A model generated the notes under the pieces. That model saw nothing but the letters and a program-made list of their open reading frames with translations, searched no databases and was not told the DNA's origin. A DNA stretch of 64,000 bases. Origin: Kiritimatiellia bacterium. GTDB lineage: Bacteria; Verrucomicrobiota; Kiritimatiellia; RFP12; JAAYLN01. Both the position numbers and the translations under genes were made by a program. Below, piece after piece: positions 9,476 to 20,533 of this stretch; positions within the stretch are counted from its first letter, which is position 1, and each line of letters begins with the position of its first letter. The stretch covers positions 1-64,000 of the forward strand of contig JAGCUY010000217.1 in NCBI GenBank assembly GCA_017962605.1, in the 5' to 3' direction.

Positions 9476-10804
9476 CTATTTCGCCGTCACCACCACGCGG
9501 AAGCCGTAGATGCGGCTGGAGGCGGAAACCTGCTCGTGGTTTCGGTCATACACGGTCACCTGGTTTTCCGCGAAGGCATAGTTGCCGCCTCGCAGGATGC
9601 GGCCCTCCGTGAAATAAGTTGGATTTGCAGGATCCGTGCGCGGATCAACAAACGAATATCCGGCTCCCGTGGGACGCCTGGTCCTGTAGCCGTCGCCGCA
9701 CCATTCGGCGACATTCCCGAGCATGTCATAGAGTCCCCAGTTGTTTGGCGCGTAGGATCCCACCTTGCCGGTTCCGGCGGCCGTGGAGATCGTGCCATCC
9801 TTGCTGTTCATGGTGAGACCCGTCACTCCGGTTGGCGAATTCGCGGTGCGGGCGTAGTTCTTTATGGTGCTGGACGTCACGCCCGTCCAGCCAAACTCGT
9901 AGTCCGTCCCGGCGCGGGCCGCGTATTCCCACTGGGATTCTGTCGGGAGGTCAATCCATGTCATGCCGGTGCGCGCGCGGAGATTGGCGATGAACGTCCC
10001 AGCCACGCAGTTTGTCCCGCTGGCCGGATCGCTGTCCAACCAGCCGGTCTCCCCGCGAATTGCCTGGAAGGACACTTGCTCAACGGAGCGGGTGGCCCGG
10101 TATGTCGTGTTGGAGTAGAAACTGGGCCATGTGCCCTGGACCTGATACCACTGCTGCTGCGTGCACTCGAAAATACCGATGTAGAACGGCCACGAGTGCG
10201 TGACCTCGTGCGACGCCCAAGCGGAATTCGGGGAACTCATATAGCCGTCGTAGCCCATCGTAAAGGTCCCGGCGGGGCAGCGGCGGAGCCACATCTCCGT
10301 GGTGCGGCAGGTGTCATCTGAAATGTCCGGCGCCTGAGTGGTGTAGCGCACCGGGTATTCGCCAGCGCCAGCGCTGGGACCGGCGGAGAGGTCGATTACC
10401 ATGTAAACGGGCGCGGTGTCGCCAAGGGGCGTCACGGTGACACGAGCGGAGAAGTTGGAGGTGACGAGGCCGGGATACTGCGCTTCAAGATCCCAGGTGA
10501 GGCGATGCACGCCGTCGCCAGATACGATTGGCTCCGTCAGTAGCGTCGTTGCGCCCACCTCGTCGCCCTCGATGCCAGGGAAACGAGCCGCCACATCAAC
10601 CTGGTAGAGTGTTCCGGCATCCGTGCCAGAGAGGGTGAAGTCGATATCGACCAGATTGTTCCAGGGCCAGCGCTGACGCGCAGTGATGTCCGAAACATCT
10701 AGCGCGGACGAGGCCGACACAGTGCCGATTGCACAGACTGCCGCGAGGGAGGCACGGCGGATGGAGAATCCGTGCGCGGATGTTGATGAATTCATGAACT
10801 TCAT
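9476..10804 (-). CDS. Exported formylglycine-generating-enzyme-fold (SUMF1) protein
   Basis: 442 residues. A signal peptide is followed by a short beta domain beginning RQRWPWNNLVDIDF, then a SUMF1/FGE-fold domain from about residue 170. Family marks are PAGTFTMG, a TESQWEYAARAG helix, the GLYDMLGNVAEWCGDGY signature and the closing RGGNYAF...GFRVVV strand. Canonical FGE converts a sulfatase Cys or Ser to formylglycine, but exported members often serve other or unknown roles, and no sulfatase lies nearby. ATG 10804 is preceded by GAAAGG. It heads the operon running to 3484. Its leader (10805-10905) can fold almost end to end into a hairpin. Confidence 0.8.
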   Translation of the reverse strand: MKFMNSSTSAHGFSIRRASLAAVCAIGTVSASSALDVSDITARQRWPWNNLVDIDFTLSGTDAGTLYQVDVAARFPGIEGDEVGATTLLTEPIVSGDGVHRLTWDLEAQYPGLVTSNFSARVTVTPLGDTAPVYMVIDLSAGPSAGAGEYPVRYTTQAPDISDDTCRTTEMWLRRCPAGTFTMGYDGYMSSPNSAWASHEVTHSWPFYIGIFECTQQQWYQVQGTWPSFYSNTTYRATRSVEQVSFQAIRGETGWLDSDPASGTNCVAGTFIANLRARTGMTWIDLPTESQWEYAARAGTDYEFGWTGVTSSTIKNYARTANSPTGVTGLTMNSKDGTISTAAGTGKVGSYAPNNWGLYDMLGNVAEWCGDGYRTRRPTGAGYSFVDPRTDPANPTYFTEGRILRGGNYAFAENQVTVYDRNHEQVSASSRIYGFRVVVTAK

Positions 10805-10823
10805 GGTGTTGCCTTTCGCATGG

Positions 10824-10908
10824 TTAATTATTTCGTTCGCTAGGGCTTTCGGCCCTTGCCGCGGCCCCGGCCACGGGACACAGCCCAAGCGAACAATAAT
10901 TATTTTAC
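10824..10908 (-). promoter_or_regulatory. Promoter and long inverted-repeat leader of the exported-protein operon
   Basis: A TAAAAT -10 at 10902-10907 places the TSS near 10895. The predicted leader starts with TTGTTCGCT (right arm 10888-10904 on the plus strand) and pairs with AGCGAACGAA near the start codon (10824-10841), enclosing a second hairpin with arms AGGGC/GCCCT at 10842-10856. Almost the whole leader could be double stranded, leaving the SD region beyond the hairpin open. Confidence 0.5.
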
Positions 10909-12167: not shown

Positions 12168-13331
12168 TCACAGTCGCGTCCGGCGCCATTCGCGCATGGA
12201 GACGTGGAAGCGGGAGAGGAAGAGCTTGCGCAGTTCGCCGTCCGTGCGGAAGCCGCAGAACGTGGCGATGGCGCCGATGGGGACGTCGCGCCTGGCCAGC
12301 AGTTCCAGGACCCGTTCGAGGCGGACCTGCAGAATTTCCTCAAGGACGCTATGCCCCATCGCTTCGCGGAAGCGCATCTCGAACAAATGACGGGAGCCAC
12401 TGAATCGCGAGGCCAGTTTCGCAGCGGTCAGGCCATCGCACGCCTTGGCGCGAATCGTCTCGACCGCCTTCAGTATGTATGGTTCGCGTCGCCCGCGCCC
12501 ACGCGTCGAAACGCGGCGCTCAACCAGCAACGGACCAAAGGTGAGGGTGCCTCCGCCAAGAGCCTTCGCGGCCAAATAGCCTGCAAGTTCATAGTCAATG
12601 CGGACGCTGGAAGTCAGCAATTCGCGATTCTGTTCCGGAGGGCTGACCACATTGTCGGCGCCAACGAGGGTGGCGGCGTATGGGAGCGAACGCCAGACAG
12701 ATTTGAACGCTCGTGAAACCTCATACGCGGTAACATCGTTGACCGCGAAGACTGCGCTGCGTGGCGGGAGCGCCGCAGCCCATTTGGCCAGCCGCACCTC
12801 CCGGGCCTCCAGCGTCTCTCCGTTCCGGGCGGGAAACGTCGCGCACGACACTCCGGCCTCCTGGCAACACGCGCGAAATGCCGCGACGCGGTCGCGCGAC
12901 CACTGGCATGGCTTGCGGTATCCAACCGCCGCGTATGCTTGCGGAAGCCCAAGGGATAGTTCGCGGAAGGCCATCTGCGCCACGGCTGCGTTGTCGCAGA
13001 CCACGGATGCCACACTGCGCCAAGGGAGTCGCTGCGGCGGGTCAAGATAGACAACAGGGGTCTTGCCGAAAAGGCGAGGCGGGAGACTGCGGATGTCAAA
13101 GCGCGCAGAGCATTCGGCGATGCAGCCCGCCACACGGACACGGGCGAGAAGTTCCGGCAAAGTCTCCGGCTCTAAGCGCTCCATCGTCGCAACCCGGAAT
13201 CCATGCTGCTTGGCGAAACGTCGGACGCCAGCCAGTTCCCGCCGGTACTTCTCCTCCCCTGCGTGGAAGTCGAGGCAGAGGATCGTTCCAGCGGACCGGC
13301 CGTCCTGATGGCTATTTCGCGCCCTGTCCAT
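12168..13331 (-). CDS. AraC-family regulator with XylR/LacI-type sensor domain
   Basis: 387 residues. The N-terminal 270 residues resemble a periplasmic-binding-protein (LacI/XylR-type) ligand domain (VATMERLEPETLPELLARVRVAGCIAE...). The C-terminal 100 residues form an AraC double helix-turn-helix ending in CGFRTDGELRKLFLSRFHVS. This architecture matches the XylR class of sugar-responsive activators. ATG 13331 (MDRARNS) lies seven bases after TGCTATAAT, so the transcript is predicted to be leaderless; an ATG further upstream would be inside or above the promoter. It is divergent from the nitrilase-GDPD gene 90 bp away, the obvious candidate target. The ligand is unknown. Confidence 0.85.
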   Translation of the reverse strand: MDRARNSHQDGRSAGTILCLDFHAGEEKYRRELAGVRRFAKQHGFRVATMERLEPETLPELLARVRVAGCIAECSARFDIRSLPPRLFGKTPVVYLDPPQRLPWRSVASVVCDNAAVAQMAFRELSLGLPQAYAAVGYRKPCQWSRDRVAAFRACCQEAGVSCATFPARNGETLEAREVRLAKWAAALPPRSAVFAVNDVTAYEVSRAFKSVWRSLPYAATLVGADNVVSPPEQNRELLTSSVRIDYELAGYLAAKALGGGTLTFGPLLVERRVSTRGRGRREPYILKAVETIRAKACDGLTAAKLASRFSGSRHLFEMRFREAMGHSVLEEILQVRLERVLELLARRDVPIGAIATFCGFRTDGELRKLFLSRFHVSMREWRRTRL

Positions 13332-13338
13332 GCAACCC

Positions 13339-13347
13339 ATTATAGCA
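13339..13347 (-). promoter_or_regulatory. Extended -10 promoter of the AraC-type regulator
   Basis: TGCTATAAT on the minus strand, ending seven bases before the ATG at 13331. Its surrounding 23 bases match the der promoter exactly, including the first bases of the coding sequence. Confidence 0.7.
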
Positions 13348-13401
13348 CATCGATGCGGCGACCCCGGCGGTTTTGCCAGCATGGATTCCTTCCCGCCATT
13401 G

Positions 13402-13410
13402 TGCTACCAT
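13402..13410 (+). promoter_or_regulatory. Extended -10 promoter of the nitrilase-GDPD gene
   Basis: TGCTACCAT on the plus strand, ten bases before the ATG at 13421, giving a leader of about three bases. It faces the regulator promoter 55 bp away. Confidence 0.55.
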
Positions 13411-13420
13411 AGATGCTGCC

Positions 13421-15052
13421 ATGAAAGCACGCATCATCCAATACCGCTTCGGCCCGGAGCCATCCGACCTCGACGCCAATTTCCAATGGATTCTCAATGA
13501 GCTCGACGCCTGCGACGACTCGCTTGACGTCATTGTCCTGCCTGAGGGCTGCGACGCGCCGGCACCGGATGCCCCTCCGGCGCCAGGTTCATCCGCCGCT
13601 TCGGCGGCTAGCCACGCGGGCTCGCGCGAAAAGCCCCTTCTTGCGGCTGTCGCCGCGACGGCGCGGCGCTGCCATGCCGCCGTATTCGTGAACTCCTATG
13701 CCGAAACCCCTACCGGCACACGCAACCGCACTTTCGCCTACGGCCCCGACGGCGAGTTTGCCGGCTTCTACGACAAGCAGAACCTCACACCGGGCGAGCA
13801 CAAGAAGCTCGACGACTCCTACACGCGTGAACCGTCGGCGCCGACTGTCATCAACATTGGCGGCGTCCGCTACGCCTTCCTTACCTGCTACGACTTCTAT
13901 TTCGTCGAGCAATGGGCCGCCCTGGCGCGCGTGCAGCCGGATGTCATCATCGGCTGCTCGCGCCAGCGCACCGACACCCACGAGGCGCTGTCCTTCCAGA
14001 ACCGCACCTGCGCCTACGCAACCGGCGCCTACCTCCTGCGCGCCAGCGTGAGCATGGGCGCGGACAGCCCCACCGGCGGCTGCTCTTGCGCCATCGCGCC
14101 CGACGGCAAAGTCCTCGGCGAATTCACAAACGAGGTCGGCCACTTCGACGTCGAGTTCGACCCGCACGCCAAGTATCTCAAAAAGGCCGGCTATGTCGGC
14201 AACATCGTATCCACGCACCCCGAATACGTGGAGCGCGGACGGCGTCCATGCAAATACCGCCCGGGCGGCAGCGCCATCGCGCCCTTCTTCGCAGAGCTGC
14301 CCGCGAAGCGCCTCTGCGCCCACCGAGGGCTACACGGAGCGGCCATCCCCGAAAACAGCCTCCCTTCGCTTGCCGCCGCCACGGCGCTCGGCGCTTCGGA
14401 AATCGAGTTCGACCTCTGGCCAACCGCCGACGGCATTCCCGTCTCGCTCCACGACAACACGCTGGAGCGCGTCAGCGACGGCAATGGCAACATCCGCGAA
14501 AAGACATTCGCGCAACTGGCCGGCATCGATTTCGGCAACAAGGCCGACCCCTGCATGGGCGGACTCGGCGTCCTGACCTTCAAGGCGCTGATGGACAAGC
14601 TCGCCTGCCATGCGTCGATGAACATCCACATCAAGGGGCGCGGGGCCAAGGACGGCGATTGGAGCGATGAGGCACTGGCATCCGTCGTCCGCGAAATCGA
14701 CGACCACGACGCACGCCGCCACGTCTATTTCATGACCAGCGACGGCGACCTCCAGCAACGCCTTGCAGCAATTGCGCCCGACATCCCCCGCTGCATGGGC
14801 AACGACAGCCTTCAAAACCTGAACCGCCCCGACATCGTGGACTACGCCATCAAATACAATTGCCAGATGGTGCAGCTATTCAAGCCATACTTCACGCAAT
14901 CGACCATCGACAGGGCGCGTGAGGCCGGCATGCGGATAAACGTTTTCTGGAGCGACGACCCTGAGGAGGCGAAGCGCTTCCTCGAAATGGGCGCGGACAC
15001 CATCCTCACCAACAGCTGGCTAAAGCTCCACAAGGCGCTCGCCATGAACTAG
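13421..15052 (+). CDS. Carbon-nitrogen hydrolase fused to glycerophosphodiester phosphodiesterase
   Basis: 543 residues with two catalytic domains. Residues about 1-290 are a nitrilase-superfamily amidase: catalytic Glu in VIVLPEGCD, Lys in GEHKKLDD and Cys in FLTCYDFYF. Residues about 305-540 are a GDPD: HRG near residue 310, PENSLPS, EIEFDLW and HDNTLERVSDG, the metal-binding and catalytic set. A low-complexity Pro/Ala/Ser insert with a CCGCCG/CGGCGG palindrome follows the catalytic Glu. The two activities in one chain suggest a substrate with both an amide and a glycerophosphodiester, for example an N-acyl glycerophosphoethanolamine; this is inference. I chose ATG 13421 because the promoter overlaps the upstream in-frame start. 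No signal peptide is seen, so it should be cytoplasmic. Confidence 0.85.
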   Translation: MKARIIQYRFGPEPSDLDANFQWILNELDACDDSLDVIVLPEGCDAPAPDAPPAPGSSAASAASHAGSREKPLLAAVAATARRCHAAVFVNSYAETPTGTRNRTFAYGPDGEFAGFYDKQNLTPGEHKKLDDSYTREPSAPTVINIGGVRYAFLTCYDFYFVEQWAALARVQPDVIIGCSRQRTDTHEALSFQNRTCAYATGAYLLRASVSMGADSPTGGCSCAIAPDGKVLGEFTNEVGHFDVEFDPHAKYLKKAGYVGNIVSTHPEYVERGRRPCKYRPGGSAIAPFFAELPAKRLCAHRGLHGAAIPENSLPSLAAATALGASEIEFDLWPTADGIPVSLHDNTLERVSDGNGNIREKTFAQLAGIDFGNKADPCMGGLGVLTFKALMDKLACHASMNIHIKGRGAKDGDWSDEALASVVREIDDHDARRHVYFMTSDGDLQQRLAAIAPDIPRCMGNDSLQNLNRPDIVDYAIKYNCQMVQLFKPYFTQSTIDRAREAGMRINVFWSDDPEEAKRFLEMGADTILTNSWLKLHKALAMN

Positions 15053-15062
15053 GGCCGGCGAC

Positions 15063-16658
15063 CTACTTCAGCCGCCATATCCTGAGCGGCGTGTGCTCCT
15101 GCCCGAAATCCGGGACAATGCAATCCAGCACGTAGCGCTCCGCCAGCGCGGCATCGATGACCGCTCGTTCCGCGTCGTTCTTCTTCAGTTCAGGCGCCGA
15201 CATCGAAAAGGCGTAGTCCGACAGCGCAACCAATTGATAGCGCCCGCTTCGAATCGCCTCAAGCGCCAGGTTCCTGTTCAGCACGTGGAAGCGGCGCGCC
15301 TCGTCGTCGGACAAGTCGGCAAAATAGCCAAAGGGCCCCATCTCAAACCCCGGCGGCACGCTGCGTCCAGAGTCAACGGCCAGATAGGCGTCCTGCGTGA
15401 GAAGCGGCTCGCCAGGAGGGAACATCACATCCACATTCCGCGCCGTCAAATGCATGGCCCAGACATCGGGCTTCGCCTTCTTCTCAACCCAGAAGCGATC
15501 CTTGCGCAGGACAAGCCACGACTCGTTCATCGGCGACGTGAAGGCGAACAGCGCCGCAGCGACGGCGAAGGCAAACAGCAGCGGCCCCTGGCGCGACTCG
15601 TCGGCTGCAGACCAGAACAGCGCCGACGCGGCAATGGCTGCCAGCGGCATGATGGGGGTCTGGTAGTCGTCGTAGGGGAACGGTGCTGACACATGGACAA
15701 GGAAGGCCGCCGCGAAGGCGGCAAGGGCCATCCAGCAGAAGCCGCGAAGGCAACCCTGACTCGCGGGCCCTTCATCCTGACTCACGGGCTCCGCCCCGCG
15801 TACACATTCTCCCCCTCCCCGTGCAATCGCAATAATTCCAAGCATCACCAATGGCATGTAGTTCCGCGCGAGCCTGGAGACCGACCCCAGCGGCAGCGAC
15901 AATCCGCCGCCGGCGCGGCCGCCGTGGAAGAAATTGGCGAAGGCGAATGCCTCCCAATCAGCCATAACGAAAGGCAGAAGCCCCGCAGCGAGGCCAAGCG
16001 CGCCGCCTATTCCAAACCAAAGCCAAAGCCCCGGATGACGCCGCCGCACAGCCAGCAGCCACAGGCCAATGACCGGAAGCATCGCGCCCAGGGAAAGGCG
16101 CGTCGCCGCAGCCAGGGCCAGCAACGCACCTCCAGCAACGCCGCACGCCACCACAATTGCGCGCCTGCTAGCAGTCCATGCGCAAGCCAAAGCAAGGGCG
16201 CCGCCGGAGACGAACAGCGAGGCCAACGCGTATGTCTTGGGGATAACCGTGAAGTAGGAATGCGCCACGTTGCACTGGAGAAGCAGGAAAACCGTAGCTC
16301 CGGCGACCAGGCGCCTCCCCTGCCCCGCAAGGCGCGCCGCCGCCAGCGACGCCAGCACCGATGCCAGCAGGCCGAACTGCGCCGTCAGCATGCGCCCGCC
16401 AAGAACGCCAATGTGCGACCATTGCGAGACCAGCGCTCCGTAAACGGCCGGCATCATAGGCGCCTGCGTGAAGAAGAAGTCGCGATAGGGCCGCGCCCCG
16501 GCGGCGAAGTTCCTCGCCGCGAGCAGATACCACCCCTCGTCCAGGTTCAGCGGGCCGAGGACGGTGTTCGCCACAATTAGAGCCAATGCCAGAAGCACCG
16601 CCAGCACCACGGCGGCGGACAGCCAGAGGTTTTTTATTTTTGCGGCATCAACCTTCAT
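15063..16658 (-). CDS. GT-C-fold membrane glycosyltransferase (family 39-like)
   Basis: 531 residues with about ten predicted membrane helices through residue 370 and a soluble C-terminal part of about 140 residues. The first extracytoplasmic loop has NLDEGWYLLAARNFAAG followed by PYRDFFFTQAP, the acidic Asp-Glu motif of GT-C polyprenyl-phosphate-sugar-dependent transferases. It probably adds a sugar from a lipid-linked donor to a cell-surface acceptor on the periplasmic side. A Ser/Gln/Glu-rich insert lies near residue 295. The start at 16658 (MKVDAAK) is chosen over a GTG two codons earlier. A long AT-rich repeat (16664-16845) lies immediately upstream. Confidence 0.78.
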   Translation of the reverse strand: MKVDAAKIKNLWLSAAVVLAVLLALALIVANTVLGPLNLDEGWYLLAARNFAAGARPYRDFFFTQAPMMPAVYGALVSQWSHIGVLGGRMLTAQFGLLASVLASLAAARLAGQGRRLVAGATVFLLLQCNVAHSYFTVIPKTYALASLFVSGGALALACAWTASRRAIVVACGVAGGALLALAAATRLSLGAMLPVIGLWLLAVRRRHPGLWLWFGIGGALGLAAGLLPFVMADWEAFAFANFFHGGRAGGGLSLPLGSVSRLARNYMPLVMLGIIAIARGGGECVRGAEPVSQDEGPASQGCLRGFCWMALAAFAAAFLVHVSAPFPYDDYQTPIMPLAAIAASALFWSAADESRQGPLLFAFAVAAALFAFTSPMNESWLVLRKDRFWVEKKAKPDVWAMHLTARNVDVMFPPGEPLLTQDAYLAVDSGRSVPPGFEMGPFGYFADLSDDEARRFHVLNRNLALEAIRSGRYQLVALSDYAFSMSAPELKKNDAERAVIDAALAERYVLDCIVPDFGQEHTPLRIWRLK

Positions 16659-17174: not shown

Positions 17175-18005
17175 TTAAGGAATGATGAGCACATCCCCAG
17201 GCTTTACCCTGTCGCCGTTCTTCACCTTGTCGGGGTTCGCATCGCGAATTCGCGGCCACTGTGTCCTGTCGCCATAGACATATTCGGCGATTACAGAAAT
17301 GCTGTCGCCCTTGCGGACTTCGTATGTCTGCAGGACTTTCTCTTTCCCGTCCGTGTCCGTAATGGTAACCGAATCCAGCTTCCCGGCATTGACGCCATCC
17401 GTGGGCGAGGACTGTATTCGCTTGATCCAAAGCAGCTGGTTGTCGATCTTGTTGTTCAAACGAACAATCTCCGCGCGCAATGTGGCATTGGACTCCGCAA
17501 GCGTCTCGTTCTGCGCTGACAGTTTCGCCACCTTGTTGTCGAGTTCCGCGTAGTTCTTCCTGATGCGGACGCCCTCGCTGTCCTCGCTGTCGGCAATCGC
17601 GCGGACATACTGCGCGGAGAGCAACTGCCCGACTTTCTCAATGCGGTTTGAGACTATCGTGAAGTCTCGCGTGGCCCCCTTCCCATTGGAATTCATCCCG
17701 GCTGTTTCAATGTAGCGGCGATAGTGGTAGATGGCGGCGAGGTAGTCGCGCCTGTATTCATGCAGGAGCAGCGCCAACTGCAGATGCGCCAGCGGCGCCG
17801 ACTTGTAGGCGTCGATCGTATCCTGGTAAAGCTTGATGGCGCGGTCGTATTCCCCCAGGCGCTCGGCGGCAATCGCCTCCTGCATCTCGCGGGACGACGC
17901 GGCATCCCCGTCTTTTGCGCGCCCATCCTGGCGCGCGCATCCCGCCGCCACCATCAATAGGCAAATGTTCGCTAAAACAATCTTCGTTGAAATCATCTTC
18001 ATCAT
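17175..18005 (-). CDS. LysM-domain lipoprotein with TPR-like and coiled-coil regions
   Basis: 276 residues. The signal peptide has a lipobox (VAAGC, Cys near residue 23). Residues about 35-110 are helical and TPR-like (AAERLGEYDRAIKLYQDTIDAYK). Residues about 150-200 are a coiled coil, and the last 50 are a LysM domain (YEVRKGDSISVIAEYVYGD...GDVLIIP) that binds peptidoglycan. It probably links the outer or inner membrane to the cell wall. I chose ATG 18005 because an upstream extension would run into the tRNA gene at 18031-18107. The tRNA lies immediately upstream on the same strand, so readthrough from the tRNA promoter is possible. Confidence 0.82.
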   Translation of the reverse strand: MMKMISTKIVLANICLLMVAAGCARQDGRAKDGDAASSREMQEAIAAERLGEYDRAIKLYQDTIDAYKSAPLAHLQLALLLHEYRRDYLAAIYHYRRYIETAGMNSNGKGATRDFTIVSNRIEKVGQLLSAQYVRAIADSEDSEGVRIRKNYAELDNKVAKLSAQNETLAESNATLRAEIVRLNNKIDNQLLWIKRIQSSPTDGVNAGKLDSVTITDTDGKEKVLQTYEVRKGDSISVIAEYVYGDRTQWPRIRDANPDKVKNGDRVKPGDVLIIP

Positions 18006-18030
18006 CTGACGGCGCAGTTGTCGGTCATCA

Positions 18031-18107
<77 letters not shown>

Positions 18108-19102: not shown

Positions 19103-19879
19103 CTAGGCCAGCAGTTCGACGCCGCCTATATTCCGCGCCCACTCAAAGGCCTTGCGCCAGTGGTTGCAGGTAAAGGCCTCCGCGCCTATGTCCCGCGCCA
19201 CCGTCAGCGCCTCCGGCGTGTTCACGCCGTAAACGCGAAAAGACATCCCCGTCGCGCGCACGGCGTCGGCTTCGTCTGGCGTCAGCGGCCTGTCGTTGGC
19301 GCAAAGCCCGGGACAAAAGGCCCAGAAGCCCGCCTCCGCGCACTGGGCCGTTTTCGCCGCGACGTCAACGTCGCCATTCTTCGGCACACCCAGCAGAAAC
19401 AGCGTCCGATATTTCGGCAGCCTTTTGTGGAAATCGAGCAGCGCTTCAAACTTGAAGGACGACACGACGATGTTTTCCTCAGTCAGTCCGGCCGCGCGAA
19501 CCGCCGCGTCAAAGAGCTCCGGATAGTCTGGCGCGTAGCCTTTGATCTCGGCCTGAAGGGTTCCGTGGCGCGGCACTGTCGCTAGCACTTCGTCAAGAAG
19601 CGGGATTCTCTCCCCTTCCCCGTTCGGAGGCGTAAGTCGCAGAGTCGCCACTTCCTCGGGCGTCAAGTCAACGATGGCCTTTTCGCAGCCGGTGTAGCGC
19701 CTCAGTTCGTTCTCGACATGGATGCAGACCATCTGCCCCGCCGCCGTGCGGTGGAAGTCGGTCTCCACCCATGTCGCCCCTGCCTCCCATGCGAGGCGGA
19801 ATGCCTTGAGAGTGTTCTGCGGAACGCTGTCGTCCCAGATGCCCCGGTGGGCGATGTTGCGGATCTTCACATTTGCCAT
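19103..19879 (-). CDS. Glycerophosphodiester phosphodiesterase family protein
   Basis: 258 residues with the GDPD TIM-barrel motifs: AHRG near residue 11, PQNTLKAF, WVETDFH (Glu-x-Asp metal ligands), LQAEIKG and a C-terminal GVNTPEALTVARDIGAEAFTCNH. In canonical enzymes the His of the HDxxLxR motif is followed by Asp; here it reads IHVENELRR, so the Asp is Val while the His is kept. Activity is likely but may be altered. The start at ATG 19879 (MANVKIR) is chosen; an in-frame ATG at 19903 would overlap a TAGAAT -10. No signal peptide, so cytoplasmic. Confidence 0.82.
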   Translation of the reverse strand: MANVKIRNIAHRGIWDDSVPQNTLKAFRLAWEAGATWVETDFHRTAAGQMVCIHVENELRRYTGCEKAIVDLTPEEVATLRLTPPNGEGERIPLLDEVLATVPRHGTLQAEIKGYAPDYPELFDAAVRAAGLTEENIVVSSFKFEALLDFHKRLPKYRTLFLLGVPKNGDVDVAAKTAQCAEAGFWAFCPGLCANDRPLTPDEADAVRATGMSFRVYGVNTPEALTVARDIGAEAFTCNHWRKAFEWARNIGGVELLA

Positions 19880-19947
19880 TTTCGTTTTTCCCAAAGCAAC
19901 CATTCTAGCAATTCCGCCGTTCCCTTTCCACAACGACGGGCTCTCTA

Positions 19948-19956
19948 TGCTATAAT
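19948..19956 (+). promoter_or_regulatory. Extended -10 promoter for the membrane protein gene
   Basis: TGCTATAAT, followed by a leader of about 42 bases containing GAAGG before the GTG start at 20006. Confidence 0.6.
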
Positions 19957-20005
19957 GGATGCAAAGGGCGATAGACGCCATTTGAGAAAGTGAAGGTTTG
20001 ACATT

Positions 20006-20533
20006 GTGGATGTAATCCATGCAAAGGCCATAACGGCCGCACTATTTGGAATCCCCGGCGCCTTTGCGCTGCTGGCGCCGGCGGCGGCGCGCCGCGTGGC
20101 AAAGGTCTTTCCCGACAACGCCGTCGCAGGCCGCATCCTCTCGGCCGCCGCGCTCCTTTGGGCTGCGGCGCTGATCTACTACACGCCACTCGACTTCCTG
20201 GCGAAGTTCCGCGTCGCGATAACGGTTTTCCTCATCGTCGCCGTTCCGCTCTCTTGGGCATGGACGCCGACGCTCCTCGCCGCACGTTCCCTTGGAGGGC
20301 TATGGTGTCTGATTCCGGCGCCGGTGCTGGTGGCTGTTAGGTTCGCCCCCGGAAGCGGGCGGCTGGTGACGGTCTCATTAATGTATGTCATGGCAGTGGC
20401 CGGAATGTTCTCCACCTTCTCGCCTTACCTCCTCCGCGACGCACTCTTCAAATTTTCGGATTCAAGCAACACCATGGCAAGAGTCATCGGGCTGCTGTTG
20501 CTGGTAGCCGGGACTGCCGCAGCTGCCGCATGA
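20006..20533 (+). CDS. Integral membrane protein, unknown
   Basis: 175 residues with about five predicted membrane helices (ITAALFGIPGAFALLAPA, ILSAAALLWAAALIYY, VAITVFLIVAVPLSWAW, LWCLIPAPVLVAV, VIGLLLLVAGTAAAAA). It starts with GTG at 20006, preceded at about 11 bases by GAAGG. No family recognised. It precedes the Lpt block, which has its own promoter, so a functional link is not established. Confidence 0.65.
   Translation: MDVIHAKAITAALFGIPGAFALLAPAAARRVAKVFPDNAVAGRILSAAALLWAAALIYYTPLDFLAKFRVAITVFLIVAVPLSWAWTPTLLAARSLGGLWCLIPAPVLVAVRFAPGSGRLVTVSLMYVMAVAGMFSTFSPYLLRDALFKFSDSSNTMARVIGLLLLVAGTAAAAA

What the first reader, a model, noticed from the sequence alone, without database searches (positions are those of the whole stretch)
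13421..15052. Nitrilase-superfamily amidase fused to a glycerophosphodiester phosphodiesterase
Both catalytic sets are complete in one 543-residue chain. An amide hydrolase joined to a phosphodiesterase suggests a two-step degradation, for example of N-acyl-glycerophosphoethanolamine to a fatty acid plus ethanolamine. A divergent sugar- or ligand-type AraC regulator 90 bp away suggests inducible expression.
Basis: partly seen in the sequence, partly recalled or inferred. Interest (0 to 1): 0.5.

Follow-up and report, generated by a model that had tools for sequence, protein, structure and literature searches.

The report
Conserved nitrilase–glycerophosphodiesterase fusion enzyme
Some bacteria, many of them from animal guts, carry one enzyme made of an amide-cutting part and a phosphodiester-cutting part; the joining is shared by many species and seems undescribed, but what it digests is still unknown.

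Summary
The fusion is real. The 543-residue chain at 13421-15052 is a nitrilase-superfamily domain joined to a GDPD domain. It is no annotation accident: 27 of 161 genomes of the window's order, 39 of 387 of its phylum by my reading of the match ranges, and up to 44 of 394 of a clostridial order (two match only in part) carry it. The nitrilase tetrad (E42, K119, E126, C156) is complete. The GDPD set is not canonical: both catalytic histidines and two metal ligands are kept, but the third, Glu in known GDPDs, is His403 in 79 of 79 distinct fusions and 13 of 13 further ones. GDPD-only relatives are scattered inside the fusion clade (11 changes), so the nitrilase part was probably lost repeatedly. 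One relative (G046) keeps the two as neighbouring genes with a PgtP/GlpT-like transporter fragment. R183 and R207 mark GDPD-linked or very close nitrilases. I favour sequential cleavage of an amide-bearing phosphodiester. N-acyl-glycerophosphoethanolamine is untested; the regulator is not a conserved neighbour. New variant of a known kind; substrate unknown.

The parts
13421..15052 (+). fusion gene, 543 aa, nitrilase domain then GDPD domain
   Evidence: full-length relatives
13427..14125 (+). carbon-nitrogen hydrolase domain (residues 3-235)
   Evidence: Pfam PF00795 E 3.6e-15
13544..13888 (+). nitrilase catalytic tetrad codons: E42 13544-13546, K119 13775-13777, E126 13796-13798, C156 13886-13888
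   Evidence: E42 in 78 of 79 (the one miss, L030, is cut off by its contig start), the other three in 79 of 79; all four in 13 of 13 further fusions. That these four are the catalytic set is recalled and agrees with the alignments
13967..14041 (+). two invariant arginines of the nitrilase domain, R183 (13967-13969) and R207 (14039-14041)
   Evidence: 79 of 79 fusions; both in the nitrilase-only L134 and in the G046 nitrilase beside a GDPD; neither in 9 of 9 other nitrilases, of which L167 has an Arg one place after 183
14126..14320 (+). end of the nitrilase domain and short junction (residues 236-300), with invariant G273, R274, P276, Y279, R280, G283
   Evidence: invariant columns; pLDDT block means 76-98
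14321..15016 (+). GDPD domain (residues 301-532)
   Evidence: Pfam PF03009 E 1.9e-29; Foldseek 3qvq_A E 1.2e-18, TM 0.88 by target length
14627..14629 (+). His403 codon (CAC) at the third metal-ligand position, Glu in the solved GDPDs aligned
   Evidence: role of that Glu from passages of PMC4926365
12168..13382 (-). divergent regulator, Peripla_BP_3 plus AraC HTH_18; a neighbour, conserved partnership not shown
   Evidence: adjacency not conserved

Best explanation
A cytoplasmic two-domain hydrolase that breaks down phosphodiesters carrying an amide (or ureido) group. The GDPD domain would cut the phosphodiester bond with metal-assisted acid-base catalysis by H301 and H344, and the nitrilase domain would hydrolyse the C-N bond through a Cys156 thioester with E42, K119 and E126. 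Shown: the fusion, its conservation, the intact nitrilase tetrad, the Glu-to-His change at the metal site, the neighbouring-gene pair in one relative, GDPD-only relatives scattered in the fusion clade. Inferred: cytoplasmic location (the chain begins directly with the first strand of the nitrilase fold; no signal peptide seen by eye), that both domains act on one compound, and that the nitrilase part sees an anionic, perhaps phosphate-bearing, substrate (invariant R183 and R207). Not known: the compound and the order of the two steps.
For: Both active sites are kept in fusions down to about 32% identity. In G046 a GDPD with the same N-x-H-x-K site is followed 55 bp on by a nitrilase and then by a truncated MFS gene scoring best to the PgtP and GlpT phosphoester transporters. 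R183 and R207 are shared by the fusions, the G046 nitrilase and the close nitrilase-only L134, and absent in nine other nitrilases. The model is confident in both domains (mean pLDDT 91.2) and each half matches its known fold. Some relatives lie beside glycoside hydrolases, a sugar kinase, a sugar isomerase and an SGNH esterase, in line with nutrient salvage, though the neighbourhood is mixed.
Against: No substrate evidence. No conserved neighbour: 43 of the 78 loci in which the gene caller gave the target have no close same-strand partner, and the partners of the others are diverse. GDPD-only copies occur repeatedly, in several genomes beside a full fusion, so the phosphodiesterase part has a use without the amidase. 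G865 has a nitrilase-only relative, L134, that also bears R183 and R207 with no GDPD beside it. The G046 GDPD looks secreted (by eye) while its nitrilase does not, so there the two would not share a compartment. That pair was seen once. The distance between the active sites could not be measured.
Confidence: 0.5

Rival explanations
1. The two domains serve different reactions; the nitrilase part cleaves a free small amide (as in omega-amidase or metabolite repair), and fusion serves co-expression or assembly.
For: Closest solved sequence relative of the nitrilase part is an uncharacterised carbon-nitrogen hydrolase (3p8k), then N-carbamoyl-D-amino-acid hydrolases. The nitrilase part seems lost repeatedly and once stands alone. 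Neighbours are diverse.
Against: Domain order and both sites are kept in two phyla; separate genes side by side in G046; R183 and R207 set this group apart from nine other nitrilases.
Confidence: 0.27
2. One reading: degradation of N-acyl-glycerophosphoethanolamine to fatty acid, ethanolamine and glycerol-3-phosphate.
For: The bond types fit; many relatives come from gut and rumen samples (record titles), where lipids are plentiful (general knowledge).
Against: No lipid gene was recognised among the 50 neighbour proteins scanned. The GDPD metal site differs from known glycerophosphodiesterases. Paired arginines in the nitrilase part suggest a polar anionic ligand rather than a fatty acyl chain (inference).
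Confidence: 0.1
3. The nitrilase part is an ammonia-producing or acyl-transferring domain (as the glutaminase part of NAD synthetase, or apolipoprotein N-acyltransferase) and the fusion remodels rather than degrades a compound.
For: Nitrilase-type domains in synthetases exist (NadE; abstract of PMC6946656 in the listing; 5kha); weak match to lnt, E 1.2e-5.
Against: No further domain in the chain by Pfam; lnt score 24.7 against a cut-off of 132.9.
Confidence: 0.1
4. Assembly or annotation artefact joining two genes.
For: None beyond the fragmented draft genome (231 contigs).
Against: 79 distinct fusion proteins from many separate assemblies.
Confidence: 0.01

Closest known systems
Glycerophosphodiester phosphodiesterases (GDPD, PF03009), e.g. 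T. tengcongensis 2pz0, Oleispira 3qvq, UgpQ-type PRK09454
   Same: Fold, HR...EN...ExD...HD motif, both catalytic histidines, two of three metal ligands.
   Different: Third metal-ligand Glu is His; fused to a nitrilase; scores 103.4 bits against the PRK09454 cut-off of 264.
Nitrilase superfamily (CN_hydrolase, PF00795), e.g. 3p8k and N-carbamoyl-D-amino-acid hydrolase
   Same: Fold and E-K-E-C tetrad.
   Different: C-terminal GDPD domain; R183 and R207; the residues after the catalytic Cys are Y-D-F-Y-F, not the N-D-R-R-W of the carbamoylase aligned.
Other nitrilase fusions: NitFhit and glutamine-dependent NAD synthetase
   Same: A nitrilase-type domain joined to an unrelated catalytic domain (abstracts of PMC9913352 and PMC6946656 in the listing).
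   Different: Partner here is a GDPD; the paper searches showed no title on such a fusion.
GDPD-only relatives with N-x-H-x-K site (L096, L098-L104; Firmicutes)
   Same: Same altered metal site in the seven whose protein could be cut out (L101 failed).
   Different: No nitrilase domain; in 6 of the 7 loci L098-L104 the two genes upstream are two clustered permease genes, identified as oligopeptide-type ABC genes on L099 only. The layout recalls AccF with the AccA importer (abstracts of PMC4526662 and PMC7356202 in the listing).

Membership tests
Nitrilase superfamily | significant match to the family model | tested here: met
   PF00795 E 3.6e-15, 56.5 bits over a cut-off of 23.2
Nitrilase superfamily | Glu-Lys-Glu-Cys catalytic residues | tested here: met
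   E42, K119, E126, C156; identity of the tetrad recalled and consistent
Nitrilase superfamily | hydrolysis or transfer at a C-N bond | not testable with these tools
   needs pure protein
N-carbamoyl-D-amino-acid hydrolase | arginine pair just after the catalytic Cys that binds the carboxylate (function recalled) | tested here: not met
   carbamoylase CNDRRW aligned to CYDFYF of this family
GDPD | significant match to the family model and the GDPD fold | tested here: met
   PF03009 E 1.9e-29; 3qvq_A TM 0.88 by target length
GDPD | HR...EN...ExD...HD motif with two catalytic histidines | tested here: met
   H301, R302, E311, N312, E329, D331, H344, D345; motif as stated in passages of PMC4926365
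GDPD | third metal-ligand glutamate | tested here: not met
   His403 in 79 of 79 and 13 of 13 fusions. Passages of PMC4926365 say that Ala at any of the three ligands inactivates ttGDPD; His is not mentioned there. The position varies in the wider family: the own genome's 8 GDPDs read, by eye, as E (3), D (2), Q (1), H (2), so membership in PF03009 is not in doubt
UgpQ-type glycerophosphodiesterase (PRK09454) | score above the equivalog cut-off | tested here: not met
   103.4 bits against 264
GDPD | release of glycerol-3-phosphate from glycerophosphodiesters | not testable with these tools
   needs pure protein

The most novel reading that the evidence does not exclude
A so far undescribed family of two-step enzymes, shared between Clostridia and Verrucomicrobiota of gut and rumen, that consumes a class of amide-bearing phosphodiester metabolites not yet recognised there, using a GDPD site rebuilt around a histidine metal ligand and a nitrilase pocket with two arginines that hold the phosphate.
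Probability: 0.3. Interest if true: 0.62.

Novelty: new variant of a known kind. Interest (0 to 1): 0.42.

Why it matters
Fusions hint at linked reactions. A fusion this widespread, with many carriers from gut and rumen, points to a nutrient whose breakdown needs both a phosphodiester and a C-N cut. The His metal ligand marks a GDPD subgroup that general models simply call glycerophosphodiesterase, so substrate calls made by name alone may be wrong. Test objects are at hand: fusion, GDPD-only and nitrilase-only relatives.

Tried and rejected
Artefact: rejected, because many separate assemblies carry the same fusion. Neighbourhood as a guide to substrate: genes of 89 sequences (88 fetched loci and a slice of the window) were clustered; 40 neighbour proteins were scanned with Pfam (three of them beside GDPD-only loci) and 10. 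Apart from the fusion itself the clusters span few loci (the ABC cluster of ten loci is largely from GDPD-only ones), so this gave no substrate. Seen once or in a few loci: SDF symporter, radical SAM, FGE-sulfatase-like, fucose isomerase, FGGY kinase, GH2, GH18, GH20, ABC exporter, SGNH esterase. Plasmid carriage: 0 of 292 matching plasmid records cover 80% of the query. Horizontal transfer: in the GDPD tree the window's order groups with Clostridia rather than with the other Verrucomicrobiota, but holding the two Verrucomicrobiota groups together is not rejected (p-AU 0.115), so I claim nothing. The promoter scan of 13100-15300 found none. An inverted repeat of 9 bases, 89% complementary, at 13374-13382 and 13413-13421 is short and was not tested against chance. 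The model's coordinates are not given, so the distance between the active sites and the place of R183, R207 and His403 in space were not measured. Paper searches: one search found none; two searches found 3 and 8 papers that hold both words, whose titles show nothing on the fusion (listings only, not opened); searches likewise; on the metal ligand found none. The library holds open-licence papers only.

Rows dropped: 84 fusion proteins became 79 after removal of identical ones, the window's included; L084, whose frame is interrupted by a stop, L089, cut by its contig, and L101 were not among them. Alignment A1 was given 75 of these: the window plus 74 loci, incomplete chains and duplicates left out. 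The 13 further fusions are 13 of the 32 fusion genomes outside the window's order. In one search one row, L147:7313-8665, a second GDPD frame overlapping the end of that fusion, had no letters at the 401-405 columns and is not counted, and L132 repeats L126. Of the 11 nitrilase places outside the fusions and G046 listed, 8 were fetched, plus one. The tree used 79 chosen rows, not all. The gene caller takes the longest non-overlapping frames and can pick antisense frames in GC-rich loci: it gave a target in 81 of 89 sequences, missing L034 and L035 among others; five loci showed no target and their GDPD or fusion was found.

Full report
What is there. The frame 13421-15052 codes for 543 residues. 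Pfam places a carbon-nitrogen hydrolase domain at residues 3-235 and a GDPD domain at 301-532. A predicted structure from 75 aligned fusions has mean pLDDT 91.2 and pTM 0.79, and Foldseek matches the model to GDPDs (best 3qvq) and to nitrilase-superfamily enzymes such as 3hkx and 3ivz.

Is it a true fusion? Yes. In the window's own order 30 of 161 genomes match at E 1e-20; 27 of these, the window's included, have a match over both domains (G077 starts at query residue 71, G058 ends at 524). The other three are GDPD-only matches. A pattern-based scan of one genome for each of 84,980 species gave 71 loci: 59 include the nitrilase part, at 41-70% identity, one of them cut by its contig (L089) and one interrupted by a stop (L084); 12 match only in the GDPD part. 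Their titles name Verrucomicrobia or Kiritimatiellae and Clostridia, Oscillospiraceae, Lachnospiraceae and the like, many from rumen and gut. In a clostridial order (that of the genome of L045) 44 of 394 genomes match at E 1e-60; G292 and G338 match only up to residues 376 and 351. In the window's phylum 45 of 387 genomes match at E 1e-30; by my reading of the match ranges 39 hold both domains (one, G890, with a TGA inside the match), 5 only the GDPD part and 1, G865, only the nitrilase part. The titles of the closest named relatives make the window's organism most likely a member of Kiritimatiellae or a near relative.

Active sites. Across 79 distinct fusions the nitrilase residues K119, E126 and C156 are invariant and E42 is present in 78, the exception being a row cut off by its contig. 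GDPD residues H301, R302, E311, N312, E329, D331 and H344 are invariant. The position that is Glu in the solved GDPD 2pz0 (NIEIK) is His403 in all 79. Thirteen further, more distant fusions from elsewhere in the phylum show the same residues at every one of these positions. According to passages of PMC4926365 the three acidic residues hold the metal, and Ala at any of them inactivates the T. tengcongensis enzyme. Of 12 distinct GDPD-only relatives, 11 have His and one (L131) has Asp at this place. Of the more distant GDPD-only rows, L003 has Gln and the window's own gene at 19103-20020 has Glu. The window genome's 8 GDPDs read, by eye, as His in the fusion and its near paralogue, Glu in three, Asp in two and Gln in one.

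Evolution. In a tree of 79 GDPD domains the GDPD-only rows fall among the fusions; 12 changes between the two states are needed, or 11 with nine older outside rows left out. The tree gives no direction, but the window genome's GDPD-only paralogue (G000:C33) begins with a stretch that resembles the first residues of the fusion (MKFTLIQPPF against the consensus MKACIIQPPYS) and then runs straight into the GDPD domain, which looks like an internal loss of the nitrilase domain. Five genomes hold a fusion and a close GDPD-only copy (G000, G150, G159, G117, G569). The phosphodiesterase part therefore seems the more widely needed one.

Linked genes. In G046, same order, the functions sit in neighbouring genes: an 812-residue protein with a C-terminal GDPD bearing the N-x-H-x-K site (its N-terminal part looks LamG-like and secreted, by eye), then 55 bp on a 295-residue nitrilase, then a 218-residue MFS fragment scoring best to PgtP (1.4e-25) and GlpT (3.4e-21), then a gene that looks like a LacI-type regulator by eye. 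This is the only such pair I found; a search for that nitrilase in 240 genomes of the class gave one other, weaker relative, G666. Elsewhere the neighbourhood is mixed: of 78 loci in which the gene caller gave the target, 43 have no same-strand partner of 100 or more residues within 60 bases.

Nitrilase pocket. R183 and R207 are invariant in the 79 fusions. Both are kept in the nitrilase-only relative L134, which has no GDPD beside it, and in the G046 nitrilase. In nine other nitrilases of the order and class neither is present; L167 comes nearest, with an Arg one place after position 183 and Gln at 207. This is a correlation in a small sample. That these arginines bind an anionic group of the substrate is inference, not seen in a structure.

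Regulator. The divergent gene is a Peripla_BP_3 plus AraC-HTH protein. In the fetched DNA of the five nearest named relatives (L034-L038), some on short contigs, tblastn at E 1e-8 finds a homologue only in L038, 39% identical and about 3.5 kb from the fusion. L129, a GDPD-only locus, has a 46%-identical one about 2 kb upstream, and weaker blastp matches (25-30%) occur in L106, the same contig as L036, and in L116, L122 and L123, none of them the gene next to the fusion. Co-regulation is possible but not shown.

Mechanism. I favour stepwise breakdown of one amide-bearing phosphodiester (0.5). N-acyl-glycerophosphoethanolamine is one candidate among many (0.1). Independent functions joined for convenience remain the main rival (0.27). 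The paper searches showed no title on this fusion in the open-licence library; subscription journals were not searched.

Noticed in passing
19103-20020, - strand: A second, separate GDPD gene lies 4 kb from the fusion in the window; it is not a close relative and has Glu (AEIK) at the third metal-ligand position.
   Followed up: partly
L124:5456-6268 (G000:C33): GDPD-only paralogue whose first residues look like a remnant of the fusion's nitrilase N-terminus, as if the nitrilase domain had been cut out.
   Followed up: partly
L126:5798-10853 (G046): GDPD, nitrilase, a half-length PgtP/GlpT-like transporter fragment and a LacI-like gene in a row; the transporter ends after 218 residues.
   Followed up: partly
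L131 (G159:C262): GDPD-only relative with Asp, not His, at the third metal-ligand position.
   Followed up: no
L098-L104: GDPD-only relatives with the N-x-H-x-K site; in 6 of 7 loci they lie downstream of two clustered permease genes, of the Opp type where tested (L099): a possible phosphodiester-uptake operon in Firmicutes.
   Followed up: partly
L147:7751-8668 (G645): A second, less related GDPD frame overlaps the end of the fusion gene.
   Followed up: no
18031-18107, - strand: tRNA-Arg (tct), the only tRNA found in the window; the GTG start of the ORF 17175-18065 as listed reads into it, so that start is probably too far upstream.
   Followed up: no
9476-10888, - strand: FGE-sulfatase-type protein near the fusion; two such proteins also sit upstream of the fusion in L122. 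Whether this exceeds the background of these genomes was not tested.
   Followed up: no
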